Assembly: GCA_014240065.1 (NCBI GenBank)
Contig: JAAZXR010000004.1
Span: forward strand, 1-64,000
DNA from: Myxococcales bacterium
GTDB taxonomy: Bacteria; Myxococcota_A; Polyangia; Nannocystales; Nannocystaceae
Direction: 5' to 3'
Length of the DNA stretch: 64,000 nt
Shown: positions 4,934 to 15,316 of the stretch, in pieces
How the letters are laid out: every line of letters begins with the position of its first letter
Position numbering within the stretch: the stretch's first letter is position 1
Program-made: the position numbers and the translations under genes
The notes under the pieces: model-generated
The model's database searches: none
What the model was told of the DNA's origin: nothing
The model's input: the letters and a program-made list of their open reading frames with translations, nothing else

Positions 4934-7900
4934 TCACGCCTCCCCCTCCGCCTCGTCGCGCGCGAGCTCGTCGAGGCGTTTGATCTTCTTTTGTAGCCCG
5001 TAGCGGCTCAAGCCGAGCAGCTTCGCGGCGTGGGTGAGGTTGCCGTCCGTCCGCCCGAGCGCGCGCTCGATGAGGGTGCGCTCGAGGTGCTCGGTGTGGG
5101 CGCGGATCCGCAGGTCGTCGGGATCGAGCCCGTGTCCTTCGCCGTGCCCCTCGATGTGAGGGCTGAGGTCACCGACCGCCACCGAGTCTTCGCACAGCGC
5201 GATCCACCGCTGCACTTCATTCTCAAGCTCCCGCACGTTGCCCGGCCACGGATACTGCACGAGCCTCCGGGTCGCGGCCGCCGACACCGCGAGCTCGTCG
5301 GCGCCATAGCGCTCGAGGAAATGGGCGATCAGCAAGGAGATGTCCTCACGCCGCGCGCGCAATGGCGGCAGCTCCAACCGAACGACGCAGAGCCGATAGT
5401 ACAGATCCTGACGAAACGTGCCGGCGGCGACCATCGCCTCGATATCCCGGTGCGTCGCCGCGAGAACCCTCGTGGAAATCGCCCGAACACGCTGCTCCCC
5501 GACGCGACGCACCTCCCCCTCCTGCAAGACGCGCAACAGCTTGGCCTGCATCCCCGCGCTCATCTCCCCGATCTCATCGAGAAAAATGGCGCCCCCGTCC
5601 GCCGCCTCGAACAAGCCAGGGCTCGCGGCGTGCGCTCCAGTGAACGCCCCCTTCGCGTGCCCGAACAGCAAGCTCTCGAGCAAGCCCTCAGGGACCGCCC
5701 CGCAGTTCTCCGCGACGAACGGCCCCGACCTCCGCGGGCCCGCGGAATGGAGCGCGCGCGCGATCAGCTCCTTGCCGGTGCCGCTCTCTCCCGTGATCAC
5801 CACGGGCATGTCGGTGCGGGCCACCCGCTCCACCAAGCGAAAGACGTCCCGCATGGCGGCGCTCTTGGAGACGATCCCGTAAAACTCCTCCTCTCGTCCC
5901 GGCGTGGCCGTCTTGGACCGAGCGCGCAGCCCCGCGATCTCCACCTCGGACTCGTCGAGGCGACGCTCCAGCGACGCCCGGGCCTCGTCGAGCTGGCGCG
6001 CCTTGTCTTCCAACCGCGCCAGGCTCACGGAGTGGGCGACAGAGAGCGCGGCCAAGCTCGCAAATTCCTCCACCTGGGCCAGGTCCTCCGTGGTGAAGGC
6101 GCCCCGCCTCAAGCGATGGTCTACGTAGACCGCCCCCATCACTCGCCCACGAAACGACAGCGGCACCGCGAGCACAGAGCGCAGGTTGAGATGCGCGACA
6201 GATCCCGCGGCCTCAAAGCGTGCGTCGCTCGCCGCGTCCACGCTGAGGACGGGCTCCCCAGTGTCCATCACTCGGCGCATGATCGAACCCGAGTACGCCT
6301 TGGCCCCCTGCTCACCCTCGATCTCGCGGCTCACCTCGATCGACTCTCCGTCCGCCTTGCGCACGACGGCGGTACCACGCTCCGCGTCCGTCAGCTCCAT
6401 CATCGCCTCCACGACCTGCTCGAGCACGCGCGGGAGCTCATCCTCTCGCGAGAGCCTCCGATACGACCGCAGCAGAGAGTCGAGGTGCTCCCCCCGCGCT
6501 CGCCTCGCGTGCGCAGACGCTGCCCCGGGCGCCTGCGCTCCCGCGTCGTCGTCATGGCGTCCGCGAGGTGCCGGCGGGCTCACCTCAAGCTCCGCTCCAA
6601 ACGCCCGCTCGAGCGAGTCATCGATCCCGGCCCGTCGCTGCAGGTGCTCCACCATGGTGTCGCGCTCTTGTTTCGTCAGTTCCTTCATACATCCCTCCAG
6701 ATATTGGCGCCCCGCGCCCCACCGCACCTTCGCCACGTCCGTCGCCCCCCACCGCGCCGCCAACAAGGCCTGCGCGAACATCACCTCCACCGCCAAGATC
6801 CGCCGCCCTGAAGACCACAACGCAGAGACCTCCGGGAGCGCTCGCGCGGCGATCACCGCGGGGCCGTCGCGGGAGCCAAGCGACACCGCGCGCTCCAGGG
6901 TGAGCGCCCACGCGAGCTCGACGTCAGGCGCGTCGCCCGCCCACGCGACCGCGAGCGTCAGCGCCTCCCCGTGCTCGCTCGACGGAGAGACGCCCCCGCG
7001 CGAAGTCTTCGCCGCCTCCAGGGCGAGCGCGGCCGCCTCCGCGCTCATGGACGCCTGGTGGTGCGCGCGAGCCAACCCGCACCACGTCTCCGCTGCGACG
7101 TGGGTTCCGTGCGCCGCGTCCATATAGAGTTGCGCCGCCCGCACCCGCAACAGCGCGACCTCGGCCCCCTGCTGCTCGCACGACGCGCGCAGCACCTCCA
7201 CGCGCCGCCGCCCCTCTCGCGAGTGTCCGAGCGCGACGAGCGGGCGCCACAGCCCCAACAAGATCGTCGCGGCCGCTTCCAAATCTCCCGCGCCAAACGC
7301 CTCGTTAAACGCGCGGCGCCCCCGATCCAAGGCCATGGCTGGCGCGCCCACGGCCCACGCGAGGGAGGCCAGCGTGCCGTCGATGGCTCGCAAGCCCTCG
7401 CGCTCCCCCGCCGCCTCGAACGCGCCGCCCGCCTGCTCCAGCAGCCAGACCGCCTCGGACAACGCGCCGGTCTGTACCGCGGAGGTGGCCTGCAGCTGGA
7501 GCGCGCGCGCGTCCACACCGAGCGCGCGCAGCCCACCCAAGCCGGCGACCCACGCGCGACCTGCATGCAACCACCTCCCGGCGTCCACCTCCTCCCCCCC
7601 CATGAGCGCGACGTAGGCACCCCACAAGAACAGCTCCGCCGTCGCGAGGCGAAGCTCCTCCGGCTCCTCTCCCGGCGTGACCGCGACGTCGGCGAGCGCG
7701 ACGCGCACCGCGTCCGCGCGCTCGCCTCGGGTCCCATCCCCCGCGGTCAGGCGCCACCGCAGCGCTGTCGCCCGCCGCCACATCGCCCCATGCACCGGGG
7801 CGTGGGACGCCGCGCGCGTGAGGGTCTGCACCGCCTCCTCGCGCCGCCCCTGGCGTTGCAAGGCTCGAGCGCGGCTGACCGCCAGCCTCTCGCGCCCGCT

Positions 7901-9826
7901 CGAGAGGCGCACCGCCTCGGCGACCTCACCGTCGCGCACACACTGATCGGCGCACGCCTCAAGAAGCGCGTCGGGGAGGCCCGCTCCGCCGCGTTCGACC
8001 ACCCAGCGCATCAACTGCGGATCTACCTGTCCCTCCAGCCGCGCGTGCGCGAGTCCGTAGGTCACGATCGCGTCGGCGTCCTCCGCGTCGAGGGCCACCG
8101 TGAGCGCGGCGAGGTGCGCCTGCGCGGTGATCAACGCGGGCGCCTGGGCCGCCAGCAGGCGGAGGGCCTCCCGCGCCATCGCCCGCCGCGAGGTCGCCCC
8201 TAAGCGCTCCCGCGCGGCGCGGCGCACCCACCCCAAGACGCGACCCCCGTCACACCAATGGACCGGCACGCGCGCGGCGGGGTCTCCCCATTCGAAGCTC
8301 ACGACCTCCCGCGCCATCGCCAACGACAGCGGCGGGTGCTTGATCTGCGTCAGGGATCCCACGCGAGGATCCCTCGGCGATCGCAGATCGAGGGCCCGCG
8401 CCTGCATCAGCGAGGTGACCAAGTCCCCGGCCCAGCCCCCCGTGGATCGCAGCAACGCCTCCGCCCAATCTTCCGCGTCCCTCGCCCCCCCCTTGATCTC
8501 CTCCACGAGCGCGAGCACGGAGGCTCTGTCCACCGGTCGCAGCGCATGGATGTGTACGTCTGGGCTCCCGAGCTCAACGAGCGCCTCCCCTAACGCGGGG
8601 CTCGCGACGACCACCAAGGCGCTACGAGCCAGCGGAGCGCTGTCACCTAAAAACTGCGCGACCACGGACGCGTCAGCCCCCAAGCAAGCATCAAAACACG
8701 TGACAACCACCGCGTCTGAGACGGCGCGCTGGGCCAGCCAAGCGCGTCGCACCCGCTGCATTCGCGACGTGAGCGCCTGCGACGACGGGCGCTTGTGAGC
8801 GTCGAGCCAGCGCACCTGGGCCATCGTCCGCCCTTCGTGCTGGAGCGCGAGCTCGCGTGCTGCCCGCCCCCGCCCGGATCCGTCGGGACCAGAGATGACG
8901 ATGATCCTCCCTGGGGCGGCGCCCCCGAGAGCGTGGAGCGGCACCTCAAGCGAGGCCCCAAGCCACGGGATATGTGTGGGCATCGACCAGCGAGAGGCCT
9001 CGGTCGGCGCCTTAGAATCCCCCGCCAGAATCCGCTCCAGGCGGGCACACACCTTGAGCCCCACGGCGTCCCGCACCTCCGGTCGGGGGTCCAACAAATC
9101 TGCGAGCAAGGCCGCGACTCCCTTCGGCCACGACGCCAACGCCCCCCGCTCCATCTCCTCCACCCGCGCGCGGGCGTCATGAACCGAGCACCCGGCGACC
9201 TGCTCCGGCCGGCGCCACGGCACCTCGCCCGTCAACCGCAGACTCAACAGCGCCCCGAGTCCAAACCAATCCGCCGCCGCCCCCCCGGACCCCGCCAGCA
9301 CCTCCGGCGCGAGGAAGCCCGGCGTCCCGGTCCCGCGCTGACCGAGGCAGCCGAAGTCGATCAGACGCACGCCGCCCCCCGATGTGCCGACCACGTTGGC
9401 GGCGCTCACATCGCCATGGTGCGTGCCACAGGCGTGAATCTTCGCCAAGGCGTACGCCACCCCCAACGCCTCCTCGCACGCGCACCGCGGATCTACCGGA
9501 CCGGGCCGAAGCGGCGCCCCCTGCACGTAGTCGCTGACCATCCACCAGCCGCCGTGATCGTCGCGGGCGAGCGCGCGCGGCATGGCGATGTGCTCGCTCG
9601 CGATGCCCCGCAGCAGCACCATCGACGTCGCCACAGCTCGCACGCTGTCTCCGTCGATGAACTTAAACGCGAGCGCGGGCCCTCGCCCGGCAGACGACTC
9701 GCTCGCCTCGACACCCGCGCCGTGCCCCACGTACACGGCCGCTTCGCTGCCTTCGCCGGCTACGGCTCGAATCTGGTAGCCAACAATATTAGGAAGGCCG
9801 CTAACTAAGTTGATGGACACTGACAA
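4934..9826 (-). CDS. Giant protein kinase-ATPase-TPR-GAF-sigma-54 activator fusion
   Basis: This 1630-residue protein joins a PknK-like sensor to a bacterial enhancer-binding protein. Residues ~15-270 are a Ser/Thr kinase fold: Gly loop GEGSEAAVYVG, Lys in ALAFKFID, catalytic loop HHGDVSAANVV (no Arg before Asp, so a non-RD type), and IDFG. A STAND/AAA-like NTPase follows at ~300, with a degenerate P-loop (GPDGSGRGR, Arg for Lys), then an alpha-helical TPR-like region (~600-1090), a GAF domain (~1150-1300) and an intact sigma-54 AAA+ module (GESGTGKE, GAFTGA, AIFLDEIGEM) with a Fis-type HTH at the C-terminus (~1595-1618). It should activate RNA polymerase-sigma-54 in response to a ligand or phosphorylation. 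The TTG at 9826 is the longest start; GTG at 9820 is an alternative. No strong ribosome binding site is seen, and an inverted repeat covers the start. Confidence 0.92.
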   Translation of the reverse strand: MSVSINLVSGLPNIVGYQIRAVAGEGSEAAVYVGHGAGVEASESSAGRGPALAFKFIDGDSVRAVATSMVLLRGIASEHIAMPRALARDDHGGWWMVSDYVQGAPLRPGPVDPRCACEEALGVAYALAKIHACGTHHGDVSAANVVGTSGGGVRLIDFGCLGQRGTGTPGFLAPEVLAGSGGAAADWFGLGALLSLRLTGEVPWRRPEQVAGCSVHDARARVEEMERGALASWPKGVAALLADLLDPRPEVRDAVGLKVCARLERILAGDSKAPTEASRWSMPTHIPWLGASLEVPLHALGGAAPGRIIVISGPDGSGRGRAARELALQHEGRTMAQVRWLDAHKRPSSQALTSRMQRVRRAWLAQRAVSDAVVVTCFDACLGADASVVAQFLGDSAPLARSALVVVASPALGEALVELGSPDVHIHALRPVDRASVLALVEEIKGGARDAEDWAEALLRSTGGWAGDLVTSLMQARALDLRSPRDPRVGSLTQIKHPPLSLAMAREVVSFEWGDPAARVPVHWCDGGRVLGWVRRAARERLGATSRRAMAREALRLLAAQAPALITAQAHLAALTVALDAEDADAIVTYGLAHARLEGQVDPQLMRWVVERGGAGLPDALLEACADQCVRDGEVAEAVRLSSGRERLAVSRARALQRQGRREEAVQTLTRAASHAPVHGAMWRRATALRWRLTAGDGTRGERADAVRVALADVAVTPGEEPEELRLATAELFLWGAYVALMGGEEVDAGRWLHAGRAWVAGLGGLRALGVDARALQLQATSAVQTGALSEAVWLLEQAGGAFEAAGEREGLRAIDGTLASLAWAVGAPAMALDRGRRAFNEAFGAGDLEAAATILLGLWRPLVALGHSREGRRRVEVLRASCEQQGAEVALLRVRAAQLYMDAAHGTHVAAETWCGLARAHHQASMSAEAAALALEAAKTSRGGVSPSSEHGEALTLAVAWAGDAPDVELAWALTLERAVSLGSRDGPAVIAARALPEVSALWSSGRRILAVEVMFAQALLAARWGATDVAKVRWGAGRQYLEGCMKELTKQERDTMVEHLQRRAGIDDSLERAFGAELEVSPPAPRGRHDDDAGAQAPGAASAHARRARGEHLDSLLRSYRRLSREDELPRVLEQVVEAMMELTDAERGTAVVRKADGESIEVSREIEGEQGAKAYSGSIMRRVMDTGEPVLSVDAASDARFEAAGSVAHLNLRSVLAVPLSFRGRVMGAVYVDHRLRRGAFTTEDLAQVEEFASLAALSVAHSVSLARLEDKARQLDEARASLERRLDESEVEIAGLRARSKTATPGREEEFYGIVSKSAAMRDVFRLVERVARTDMPVVITGESGTGKELIARALHSAGPRRSGPFVAENCGAVPEGLLESLLFGHAKGAFTGAHAASPGLFEAADGGAIFLDEIGEMSAGMQAKLLRVLQEGEVRRVGEQRVRAISTRVLAATHRDIEAMVAAGTFRQDLYYRLCVVRLELPPLRARREDISLLIAHFLERYGADELAVSAAATRRLVQYPWPGNVRELENEVQRWIALCEDSVAVGDLSPHIEGHGEGHGLDPDDLRIRAHTEHLERTLIERALGRTDGNLTHAAKLLGLSRYGLQKKIKRLDELARDEAEGEA

Positions 9827-12087: not shown

Positions 12088-12747
12088 CTAGCCCCATCGC
12101 AGCCCGTATCCGGCGGCCTGTGCATATCGCTCGGCCCACTCCCGCGCCAGCGACTCCAAAGACAACGACGCCGCGGGCGCGAAGTCTCCGAGACTCACCA
12201 GGGACATCGTGGGCGCCCCACACGAGACGAGCGACCCGAACAGCGCGGGATCCACCGCCACATTGATCGAGATTCCTTGCACGGTGACGCCACGACTCAC
12301 GTGAATTCCGATGGACGCGATCTTTCCACGCGGCGTGAACACGCCGGGCGTGTCCATCCGAAACTCCGCGTCCGCGACCCCGTGATCGCGCAGCACCTCC
12401 ATGGTGACATCGGCGAGGCGCACGATGTGGGCTCTGATCTGGCGCCCGACGGAGACGATGGGGTAGCACACCAGCTGCCCCGGCGCGTGCAGGGTGGCCT
12501 CGCCGCCCCGCGGCGTCTCGCACACCTCGACACCGCGCGCCGCGAGCTCCTCGCTGCTCCACAGCACATCTGAGGCGTCCGCGCGGCGACCGAGGGTGAG
12601 CGTCGGAGGATGCTCCACCAAGAGCAGCGTCGCGGGGCCGTCACCTCGCACGACGGCCTCTCTCGTCTCAAGCTGCTCACGCAGGCACGCCGCGAACGAG
12701 GTCCGCCCGCACCAGCGCGCCACCAACGGCTCAGGTGTCGAGGCCAC
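12088..12747 (-). CDS. lipB: Octanoyltransferase LipB
   Basis: LipB moves the octanoyl group from octanoyl-ACP to lipoyl-domain lysines, the first step of de novo lipoate assembly in the cytoplasm. At 219 residues it is of normal length. The signature RGGEATLHAPGQLVCYP (consensus RGG..T.HGPGQ; here Ala for Gly), the catalytic Lys in GKIASIGIHVSRGVTVQG and the thiol Cys in VSCGAPTMS are all visible. The start is GTG 12747, which overlaps the end of the upstream HARE-HTH gene by 17 nt, so the two are probably co-transcribed. LipA is not in the window. The assignment is firm. Confidence 0.93.
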   Translation of the reverse strand: MASTPEPLVARWCGRTSFAACLREQLETREAVVRGDGPATLLLVEHPPTLTLGRRADASDVLWSSEELAARGVEVCETPRGGEATLHAPGQLVCYPIVSVGRQIRAHIVRLADVTMEVLRDHGVADAEFRMDTPGVFTPRGKIASIGIHVSRGVTVQGISINVAVDPALFGSLVSCGAPTMSLVSLGDFAPAASLSLESLAREWAERYAQAAGYGLRWG

Positions 12748-14185
12748 GAATCGACTCGATCACCCGCGCCTCAAGCACGGGCGCCTCCAGGGTCAGTCGC
12801 CGCACGCCAACACCGGTCCGGATCATCCACTCGCAAAACTCGCGAGCCGAGATCACCCGACTGTCGAGCGCGGCCTCGTCGTCGGCGTCCCCCATGACAA
12901 AGGCGATCACGCCGGCGCAGTTCGCTCGCTCGGCCTCCGACTCCATCACACGCATCTCGAAGGCAGATTTCTTCGGCGCGACCACGGCGAGATAGCGGTC
13001 CTCGTCACCGTCCTCATCCTCCACCACCATGCGGCAGATACCGCGGGCGGGCACCATGGTGGAACGCACGCGGTAGCCCTCGCGCTTGAGGTACATGCGA
13101 ACCAATGTCTCAAGCCCCCGCGGCCCGAGGCTGGTCAGCCACCCCCGCAGCTGCAAATCGGTCTGTTTCTCGACCTCGCTCTGGGCGCTTCGAAGCGCCT
13201 TCTCCGCGGCCCACGCGGCGGCGGGGAGCCGGACGCCACGAGCCTCGTAACGGGCCTCTCCACTGGCGATGAATCGAGAGTTGGCGCCGTGCTCATGGAC
13301 GTCCGTGAGGATCTGCGCGGTGACGCTGCGCTCGATCTCTGAGATGTCGCCGCCGAGGAGCCCCTCCTTCGCGAGCGACTCTGCGAGCTGACGAATATGC
13401 ACGGAGCGCGCGCCCGCTGCCTCGAGCACGCTCGCGGCTTTGTCGAGCAGGTCGCCCTCGCCCTCCCCGACCTCGCGGGGCTCGACGCCGTTCGCGCCCC
13501 ACTCCGCCTTGCGGGATTTCCTCCTTCGGCGGCGCTTGCGTTTCGAGGATCCGCGCTCTTCGTTGTCTCCGCCTCGCGGCTGCCGGTCACCGCGAATCCG
13601 CCCTTTGACCTTGTGGACGACGGTTGGCCCGTCCCCTTGCGCCCGCGCCTGCGACGCTTCGAATTCTTGCTTGAGCTCCGGCCGCGCCTCGGCGAGTCGA
13701 GACATCGCGTTGGCCATGACGAGCGCGACGTCGGTCACCCCTTCGAGCCCGGAGCCTTCCGGCGCCTCGAACTCGACCGCCGTGCCGCCGGCCTCGGGCG
13801 CCTCCGCCTCGGGCGCCGCGGCCACCACCTCCGCGGGAGCGGATGCAGCCTCCGCGCCCTCCGCTTCACGCGACCTGCCGCGCCGTGTACGTTTCGCGCG
13901 CTTGGGCGGCGGCGGATCTTCGGTGGGCGCCGCGGCCGGGGGCGTCGCGCGGACCGGGAGATCTGCCCCCTCGCGAATCTGGTAGTGGGCGGGCTTGGCC
14001 CGCGCGAGCAGGGCCTCGTCACCCGCACGCACCGCGCTCGTGAGGCACTTTTGCATGGCGGCCTCGGGGTCGCGCCCGACGTGTGAGAGGAGCTTGCGTT
14101 GCACGGCCTGCTTCGCGATGGCTGAGTAGTGGAGCGGTTCGGGTGCGTCACGCAGCACCTCGATTGCAGCTTCGAGAAAAGTCAT
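12731..14185 (-). CDS. HARE-HTH protein with basic linker and Mrr-like C-terminal domain
   Basis: A 484-residue protein. Residues 1-75 match the HARE-HTH winged-helix fold (TFLEAAIEVLRDAPEPLHYSAI), also found in RNA polymerase delta and eukaryotic ASXL proteins. A long low-complexity region follows, with two very basic patches (KRAKRTRRGRSRE and KRKRRRRRKSRK), a second HARE-like helical unit (about 245-315), and a C-terminal domain (about 345-484) starting RGWLTSLGPRGLETLVRMYL, typical of the helix that opens Mrr-type restriction-endonuclease folds. The usual D...QxK catalytic set is not clear (AVVAPKK stands at the QxK position). A nucleic-acid-binding role linked to DNA modification or chromatin state is an inference. 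The ATG at 14185 is preferred, since upstream starts add 25 unstructured residues. Confidence 0.75.
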   Translation of the reverse strand: MTFLEAAIEVLRDAPEPLHYSAIAKQAVQRKLLSHVGRDPEAAMQKCLTSAVRAGDEALLARAKPAHYQIREGADLPVRATPPAAAPTEDPPPPKRAKRTRRGRSREAEGAEAASAPAEVVAAAPEAEAPEAGGTAVEFEAPEGSGLEGVTDVALVMANAMSRLAEARPELKQEFEASQARAQGDGPTVVHKVKGRIRGDRQPRGGDNEERGSSKRKRRRRRKSRKAEWGANGVEPREVGEGEGDLLDKAASVLEAAGARSVHIRQLAESLAKEGLLGGDISEIERSVTAQILTDVHEHGANSRFIASGEARYEARGVRLPAAAWAAEKALRSAQSEVEKQTDLQLRGWLTSLGPRGLETLVRMYLKREGYRVRSTMVPARGICRMVVEDEDGDEDRYLAVVAPKKSAFEMRVMESEAERANCAGVIAFVMGDADDEAALDSRVISAREFCEWMIRTGVGVRRLTLEAPVLEARVIESIRGLDT

Positions 14186-14380
14186 CTGTATATTGTTCCG
14201 TTGGGAGTTATGGGATGCACCGGGCGAACCGTCTCGCACGAACACAGCTCGTTCGAACATGCAGCCTGCGAAAAAGGCTCCGGTGACCGACGTCGCGTCC
14301 GCGTCTCAGATCGCGTCGCCAGCCTGTGAATTATCAGAGAATTTGGCCCCATTTTTCAAGCCCTGATACTGACTGAACCT
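14186..14380. promoter_or_regulatory. Divergent promoter region, HARE-HTH gene / Ddl-like gene
   Basis: This 195-nt divergent gap is less GC-rich near both ends. On the plus strand GATACT (14365-14370) lies 10 nt before the ATG of the Ddl-like gene and is a plausible -10, with TTGGCC 16 nt upstream as a weak -35. On the minus side the sequence next to the start contains AACAATATACAG. No terminator or RNA gene is seen. Confidence 0.4.
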
Positions 14381-15316
14381 ATGGACTCCCTCACAGTTGG
14401 AATTTTGGTGTCTCGTGACCTGCAGCGCGCTCGTCTGGACACCTCAGGCTGCGATCTCGCCTCTGGGGTCGCGGTCGCTGAGGCCCTGGGTGAGCTTGGA
14501 CACCGCCCTCGCATGCTCTACGTGGACGAAAACCTCGATCTCGCGCTTCGCGCGGGGCACCTCGACGCCGCCTTTTTGTGCCTCCACGGCCGGGTCGGCG
14601 CCCAAGGAGGCGTTCAGGCCGCGCTCCAACTGCGCGGGATTCCCGTGTACGGCCCCGACGCGTCCTCGGCGAGCCTCGCGTTCGATAAGTCACGATCCCG
14701 CAAGACCTTGGCCTTTCACAACCTCCCGGTGCCGACCTCCGTGGACCTCGTGTCCGGCCAAGATGCGGACGCCCGGGCGCTCGGGATGCTCGGGTGGCCC
14801 TGCATCATCAAGCCCCGCCGGGGCGCACACGGGATCGGTGTATCGCGGGTGGAGTCTCCCCGCGACGTGTACGCAGCCATCGATCACGCCATGGCGATCG
14901 ACGAGAACATCATCGTCGAACGAGCCCTGGTCGGGGACGAGGTGCAAGTCATGCTGATCGACAACGAGCTCCTCGGGTTGGCGAGTGTGTCGCGAACACA
15001 AGGTTCGTTCACCTACCCGGCCGCCATCGACCGCGGCCGCCAAGACAGCATCGCTCGCCTCGCCGTCCGCGCCGCAGGGGTGCTCGGGCTCTCCGACTCT
15101 CCGTGCCGCGTGGACCTCCTCGTCGATCCCGAAGGCAACGAGTACATCCTTGAGGTCGAGCCGCTGCCCCCCTTCCACGCCGACGGTGCGCTCCAACGCA
15201 TGCTCCGAGCCGAGGGGATCCGGTTCTCCGAGTTTATCAACACGGCGCTTCAGTCGTTGGAGGCGACCCCCACCGTCGTCGAGCGGGCGGCCTTCTCCCA
15301 AGTCGCGCTCCACTGA
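14381..15316 (+). CDS. ddl: Divergent D-alanine-D-alanine ligase-like ATP-grasp enzyme
   Basis: A 311-residue protein with the Ddl layout: N-terminal Rossmann-like domain, central and C-terminal ATP-grasp domains. Recognisable features are LCLHGRVGAQGGVQAALQL (Ddl: hGxxGEDGxxQG), GIPVYGPDASSASLAFDK (family: G.pY.G....s.l..DK), CIIKPRRGAHGIGVSRV for nucleotide binding, and VDLLVDPEGNEYILEVEPLPP. Two normally invariant elements differ: the N-terminal GGxSxEhxVS substrate loop is absent (VSRDLQRARLDTSG), and the metal-ligand motif LExNxxPG reads LEVEPLPPF, with Glu for Asn. It may ligate a substrate pair other than two D-Ala. It lies 5 nt upstream of a GT51 glycosyltransferase gene, which supports a cell-wall role. 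Confidence 0.8.
   Translation: MDSLTVGILVSRDLQRARLDTSGCDLASGVAVAEALGELGHRPRMLYVDENLDLALRAGHLDAAFLCLHGRVGAQGGVQAALQLRGIPVYGPDASSASLAFDKSRSRKTLAFHNLPVPTSVDLVSGQDADARALGMLGWPCIIKPRRGAHGIGVSRVESPRDVYAAIDHAMAIDENIIVERALVGDEVQVMLIDNELLGLASVSRTQGSFTYPAAIDRGRQDSIARLAVRAAGVLGLSDSPCRVDLLVDPEGNEYILEVEPLPPFHADGALQRMLRAEGIRFSEFINTALQSLEATPTVVERAAFSQVALH

What the first reader, a model, noticed from the sequence alone, without database searches (positions are those of the whole stretch)
12731..14185. Two HARE-like winged helices joined by basic linkers to an Mrr-like domain
HARE-HTH domains occur in RNA polymerase delta, restriction systems and eukaryotic chromatin proteins. This protein has one clear and one probable HARE unit, two strongly basic patches and a C-terminal fold resembling Mrr nucleases with an unclear active site. 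It looks like a DNA-modification reader or nucleoid protein and is linked to lipB, not to a restriction system.
Basis: partly seen in the sequence, partly recalled or inferred. Interest (0 to 1): 0.55.

Follow-up and report, generated by a model that had tools for sequence, protein, structure and literature searches.

The report
Domesticated, dead restriction-enzyme relative
This bacterial gene encodes a DNA-binding-type protein that looks like a restriction enzyme which lost its cutting site long ago and was kept as a fixed chromosomal gene, often next to a lipoic-acid gene, probably to organise or regulate the cell's own DNA.

Summary
A 484-aa ORF on the minus strand (14185..12731) has a strong N-terminal HARE-HTH, a second HARE-HTH just above Pfam's cut-off (the only two in the genome), two Arg/Lys patches and a C-terminal domain. 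That domain hits no family directly, but it is an Mrr_cat (PD-(D/E)XK) relative: it is homologous to C-terminal domains of class relatives, 12 of 12 of which hit Mrr_cat, and its profile matches Mrr_cat far above shuffled controls. The catalytic Asp is replaced in all 92 family members aligned, while 22 Mrr-type relatives keep D, Q and K. The protein is in 28 of 29 genomes of its order; its C-terminal profile in 99 of 104 of its class. lipB lies directly downstream in 59 of 92 loci examined, and in 0 of 6 active-type loci. dN/dS is 0.10. Active HARE-Mrr enzymes match candidate defence family PDC-S02. Best reading: a HARE-Mrr restriction-type enzyme domesticated into a non-cutting chromosomal DNA-binding protein. 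Its function (nucleoid or regulatory, modification reader, or polymerase factor) is inferred, not shown. Structure prediction failed for lack of an allowed deep alignment.

The parts
12731..14185 (-). HARE-HARE-dead-Mrr protein, 484 aa, with stop codon
   Evidence: same start motif in 27 of 27 order loci fetched
13973..14185 (-). HARE-HTH domain 1 (residues 1-71)
   Evidence: PF05066 51.4 bits
13868..13903 (-). first basic patch (residues 95-106) in a fast-evolving linker
   Evidence: sequence; linker dN/dS 0.19, highest of the six regions
13646..13777 (-). conserved middle motif (residues about 137-180, FEAPxGSGLxGxTDVALVMANAMSRL), no family known; seen in the own order only
   Evidence: A1; dN/dS 0.03; no HARE similarity (0.1)
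13508..13543 (-). second basic patch (residues 215-226), Arg run conserved in the order
   Evidence: A1; K/R run of 5 or more between HARE1 and the C-terminal domain in 61 of 71 dead full-length proteins
13238..13450 (-). HARE-HTH domain 2
   Evidence: PF05066 26.6 bits against 25.9; hhalign
12770..13153 (-). catalytically dead Mrr_cat-like (PD-(D/E)XK) domain, about residues 345-472; catalytic Asp position is R385, Q-x-K not kept
12088..12747 (-). lipB, octanoyltransferase; overlaps the HARE gene by 17 nt
   Evidence: PF21948 E=7.1e-30
14381..15316 (+). divergent D-Ala-D-Ala-ligase-like ATP-grasp gene, conserved neighbour
   Evidence: PF07478 E=1.4e-23; neighbourhoods

Best explanation
It is a non-cutting chromosomal DNA-binding protein that descends from, or shares ancestry with, HARE-Mrr restriction-type enzymes. 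Shown here by sequence: the two HARE units, the Mrr_cat ancestry of the C-terminus, loss of the catalytic residues, wide presence in the phylum with conserved neighbours, purifying selection and the operon-like lipB linkage. Inferred: the two HARE winged helices touch DNA at two points, the flexible Arg-rich linkers hold it electrostatically, and the Mrr fold, no longer cutting, serves as a dimerisation and DNA-holding module. The protein would thus bridge or mark host DNA, acting as a nucleoid-associated or global regulatory protein expressed with a housekeeping gene, not as a defence gene.
For: HARE x2. Mrr ancestry: window C-terminal family v 21 Mrr_cat domains, hhalign probability 93.5, E 2e-7, against reversed 0.2 and best of 20 shuffles 5.6; class relatives with the same architecture hit both PF05066 and PF04471 in 12 of 12 scanned. 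Dead site: 16 of 16 Mrr_cat control domains and 6 of 6 active-type fetched proteins keep D, Q and K; 92 of 92 family members lack the D. Tree: 21 active rows form one side of a 100/99 branch, 92 dead rows lie on the other. Distribution: HARE or C-terminal domain in 28 of 29 order genomes; C-terminal profile in 99 of 104 class genomes, counted by hand from the listed rows, and 157 of 377 phylum genomes (a few hits are active Mrr enzymes, so upper bounds). lipB on the same strand in 59 of 59 loci where found; 56 of 59 gaps lie within -35 to +62 nt, 28 overlap. dN/dS 0.096. Active relative L201: PDC-S02 E=5.8e-138, with plasmid-borne relatives annotated restriction endonuclease; the dead relative L120 has no plasmid match.
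Against: No DNA-binding, expression or phenotype data. The window C-terminal domain has no direct Pfam or PDB match. The AlphaFold2 model is poor (pLDDT 50.4) and its PDB search found no REase fold, so the fold rests on sequence profiles. HARE2 is barely above cut-off in the window. The protein's net charge is slightly negative (pI 6.3), less typical of a bulk nucleoid protein. 33 of 92 dead members show no lipB next door. The direction of change (active to dead) is not proven: the tree is unrooted. The catalytic Lys cannot be judged, since the alignment register there is unsure by one residue.
Confidence: 0.55

Rival explanations
1. It is a reader of DNA modification (m6A or m4C) that couples a conserved methyltransferase to transcription or replication, using its HARE domains as sensors.
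For: HARE-REase fusions are proposed to recognise modified bases (PMC10853773 passages; PMC11037411 passages). PF01555 N6/N4 methyltransferases occur in 29 of 29 order genomes.
Against: No methyltransferase among the window neighbours scanned. 15 of 27 HARE-bearing order genomes have no PF00145 cytosine methyltransferase match, so 5mC is not the common signal. PF01555 is a broad family, so 29 of 29 is weak evidence.
Confidence: 0.2
2. It is an RNA-polymerase-associated factor in the manner of the delta subunit (RpoE), with HARE contacting polymerase and charged linkers competing with nucleic acid.
For: HARE is the delta N-terminal domain (recalled; PF05066 rings in the Bacillus subtilis and Lactococcus lactis controls). 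It is a core gene of the order.
Against: The NCBIfam delta model gives E=0.17 and 12.1 bits against a cut-off of 42. The linkers are Arg-rich, not an acidic tail, and delta has no Mrr domain (recalled).
Confidence: 0.15
3. It is a local regulator of lipB and lipoic-acid metabolism.
For: Tight same-strand coupling to lipB in 59 of 92 loci, often overlapping.
Against: The protein persists in 33 dead-type loci with no adjacent lipB, in families f11, f14, f22, f25 and f45 among others. The ddl and phosphoesterase neighbours suggest an old gene cluster, not a dedicated regulon.
Confidence: 0.08
4. It is still a nuclease with a relocated active site.
For: D390 is invariant in the 24 order sequences, a few residues from the canonical Asp site.
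Against: D390 is not kept in most class relatives, and no E/Q-x-K partner is kept in the window.
Confidence: 0.04

Closest known systems
HARE-Mrr (HARE-REase) modification-dependent restriction enzymes; PADLOC candidate PDC-S02
   Same: N-terminal HARE, middle region, C-terminal Mrr_cat; the end of the C-terminal domain is alike
   Different: Those keep D-Q-K, lack long K/R runs (0 of 2 full-length tested), have plasmid-borne relatives and lack lipB linkage (0 of 6); the window itself has no PADLOC hit
Mrr_cat family PF04471 (E. coli Mrr type)
   Same: C-terminal PD-(D/E)XK-like profile
   Different: Catalytic residues lost; no direct hit for the window protein
NA-iREase1 PF22722, inactive restriction endonuclease domain of NACHT proteins
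   Same: Inactive REase fold; weak matches in relatives (E 4.3e-5 for L132, below its cut-off)
   Different: No NTPase domain and no defence context seen here
RNA polymerase delta (RpoE) and eukaryotic ASXL and HB1 HARE proteins
   Same: HARE-HTH domain
   Different: No acidic tail and no eukaryotic chromatin domains (recalled); delta model not met

Membership tests
HARE-HTH (PF05066) | profile match over the gathering score | tested here: met
   51.4 and 26.6 bits against 25.9
Mrr_cat (PF04471) | direct profile match of this protein | tested here: not met
   no match at E<=1; not among the families matched by the 24 order members
Mrr_cat (PF04471) | homology through class relatives and profile-profile comparison | tested here: met
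   12 of 12 class relatives hit; hhalign 93.5 against a best shuffle of 5.6
Mrr-type nuclease | catalytic D and (E/Q)xK | tested here: not met
   D replaced in 92 of 92 family members; window has R at D and V at Q in the alignment
Mrr-type nuclease | PD-(D/E)XK three-dimensional fold | tested here: inconclusive
   model pLDDT 50.4, no significant PDB match
PDC-S02 defence candidate | PADLOC model match | tested here: not met
   window none; class relative L120 E=3.6e-7; active L201 E=5.8e-138
RNA polymerase delta | NCBIfam TIGR04567 cut-off | tested here: not met
   12.1 bits against 42
Nucleoid-associated protein | abundant, chromosome-wide DNA binding | not testable with these tools
   needs ChIP-seq and proteomics

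The most novel reading that the evidence does not exclude
A modification-dependent restriction enzyme was disarmed once, early in the history of this phylum, and became a core chromosomal protein, a chromatin-like DNA bridger or reader with HARE domains, fixed beside lipB. It would be a bacterial parallel to the use of HARE domains in eukaryotic chromatin proteins.
Probability: 0.4. Interest if true: 0.78.

Novelty: new variant of a known kind. Interest (0 to 1): 0.58.

Why it matters
HARE and Mrr domains are known from restriction, and HARE also from eukaryotic chromatin proteins. A widespread, chromosomally fixed, non-cutting HARE-Mrr protein is a candidate intermediate between defence enzymes and chromatin readers, and makes that route testable in culturable bacteria. 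It also warns that HARE/Mrr annotation alone does not mean restriction: such genes could be miscounted as defence.

Tried and rejected
Full-protein and full-alignment searches of genomes failed four times (the tool gave no usable answer). The Arg-rich linkers may be the reason, so I used the family PF05066 and the C-terminal alignment instead. PDB sequence searches with A1, A2, A4 and A7 gave nothing significant. AlphaFold2 on residues 243-484 with only two sequences gave pLDDT 50.4, and Foldseek on it gave no match at E<=0.001; its order of helices and strands resembles PD-(D/E)XK, but I do not rely on it. The longer 509-aa start was rejected, since M-T-F is the shared start. An active restriction enzyme was rejected for lost catalytic residues and fixed synteny. 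Literature: searches for HARE-HTH, HARE/Mrr/inactive, HARE/delta/myxobacteria, Myxococcus nucleoid/HARE-type, PDC-S02, domesticated inactive REase and lipB/Myxococcota: no description of this family appeared in the listings, which I read as listings only. Aravind and Iyer 2012, the key paper, is not held, so it may mention such proteins; I have not seen it.

Choice of loci: the 56 loci of the third set were picked from the listed hits by rank and contig room, not at random. The 21 Mrr_cat domains are a choice from the 33 hits listed. Five divergent ones (L071, L072, L079, L085, L086) were then left out of the joint alignments and the tree, although they are in the 21-row profile. L202 was dropped from the tree as a copy of Mrr_L078. 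L045, L055 and L056 (truncated or frameshifted) were left out of A1. lipB was not looked for around the other Mrr_cat loci. The 98 loci are related to one another, so the lipB counts are not independent.

Full report
WHAT IS THERE. The ORF runs on the minus strand from 14185 to 12731, 484 aa. HARE-HTH PF05066 matches twice and nowhere else in the genome: residues 1-71 at 51.4 bits and about 246-316 at 26.6 bits, cut-off 25.9. Between them lie two basic patches and, in the order, a highly conserved motif of unknown kind. The C-terminal 166 residues match no Pfam, NCBIfam or PDB entry significantly.

FAMILY IN THE ORDER. PF05066 is found in 27 of 29 genomes of the order and the C-terminal profile in 27 of 29; together 28 of 29, with G017 lacking both. 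24 full proteins were aligned; they share the start M-T-F-L-E-A-A-I and the C-terminal end. The nearest named relative is a Nannocystaceae MAG contig (L001, 85%), so the source is probably Nannocystaceae, Myxococcota. Selection between the window and L001: dN/dS 0.096 overall, 0.026 in HARE1, 0.029 in the middle motif, 0.091 in the C-terminal domain; lipB 0.115 for comparison.

THE C-TERMINUS IS AN MRR DOMAIN. A profile of it finds 18 further genomes of the class at E 1e-8 to 9e-4. Of these, 12 gave full-length proteins with the same layout of HARE, a second wHTH and the C-terminal domain. All 12 match both PF05066 and Mrr_cat PF04471, best E 1.8e-12. Profile-profile: window family v Mrr_cat 93.5, class relatives v Mrr_cat 98.9, window family v class relatives 99.0, reversed 0.2, best of 20 shuffles 5.6.

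THE ACTIVE SITE IS GONE. In a joint alignment 16 of 16 Mrr_cat controls and 6 of 6 fetched active-type proteins have D, Q and K (L202 among the 6 is the same protein as control Mrr_L078). None of 92 family members has the D; the window has R there and V at the Q. Some families keep the Q (f35) or a K (some of f22) alone. The register around K is uncertain by one residue in the window's order. A tree of 113 C-terminal domains puts the 21 active rows on one side of a branch with support 100/99, and the 92 dead rows on the other. The tree is unrooted, so one loss is consistent but not proven.

DISTRIBUTION AND SYNTENY. With a broader profile, 157 of 377 phylum genomes match, 99 of 104 in the class by my count of the listed rows, and 58 of 273 elsewhere. 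These are upper bounds, as the profile also finds active Mrr enzymes (G007:C3 for one). I examined 98 loci for lipB: found in 24 of 24 in the order set, 16 of 18 in the class set, 19 of 50 dead ones and 0 of 6 active ones in the third set. In all 59 cases lipB is on the same strand; 56 gaps lie between -35 and +62 nt and 28 are overlaps, by the nearest possible start codon. The divergent ddl-like gene and a metallophosphoesterase are further conserved neighbours. Loci without lipB, such as those of f14, f25 and f45, sometimes keep ddl or the phosphoesterase, as if an old cluster had eroded.

RELATION TO DEFENCE. The active relative L201 matches the PDC-S02 candidate defence family (E=5.8e-138) and has relatives in 11 plasmid records, annotated 'restriction endonuclease' in the 8 listed, none covering 80% of the query. 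The dead class relative L120 still gives PDC-S02 at E=3.6e-7 but has no plasmid match. Published passages describe HARE-REase fusions as effectors in Dnd and BREX contexts (PMC10853773, PMC12839542; passages read). A discussion passage cites the view that HARE domains more likely sense cytosine modifications (PMC11037411; passages read).

FUNCTION, INFERRED. Between HARE1 and the C-terminal domain, 61 of 71 dead full-length proteins have a K/R run of 5 or more, and 0 of 2 active ones (only two active proteins could be tested). Two winged helices, an Arg-rich tether and an inert nuclease fold suggest stable, non-cutting DNA contact on the chromosome. A 5mC reader role is disfavoured: 15 of the 27 order genomes with a HARE hit lack a PF00145 match. 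N6/N4 methyltransferases of PF01555 are in 29 of 29, so an m6A/m4C reader stays open. The delta-subunit rival fails its curated model.

LIMITS. No experiment, no good structure, no rooted tree, and a sample limited to one phylum. The key 2012 paper on HARE domains was not available.

Noticed in passing
window 4934-9826 (-): A 1630-aa ORF joins a Ser/Thr protein kinase, GAF domains and a sigma-54 activator with Fis-type HTH in one protein; similar genes lie near several order loci.
   Followed up: partly
L045 (from 6106) and L055 (from 6258): In two long-contig genomes of one genus (G014, G016) the HARE ORF stops after 129 and 128 aa in the proline-rich linker, while the C-terminal domain stays open in another frame: assembly error, real frameshift or recoding.
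   Followed up: no
L202 / G007:C3:718-2126: A HARE plus active-type Mrr locus appears split into two frames (open frames of 178 and 328 aa), perhaps a decayed restriction gene.
   Followed up: no
window 13646-13777 (-): The middle motif FEAPxGSGLxGxTDVALVMANAMSRL is nearly invariant in the order, but I did not see it in the class relatives read.
   Followed up: partly
window 14186-14380: About 195 bases between the HARE gene and the divergent ddl-like gene; a shared regulatory region is likely, not examined.
   Followed up: no
L031 / G015:C1:3894514-3894729: A second, different HARE protein (339-aa frame) in one order genome, apart from the family described.
   Followed up: no
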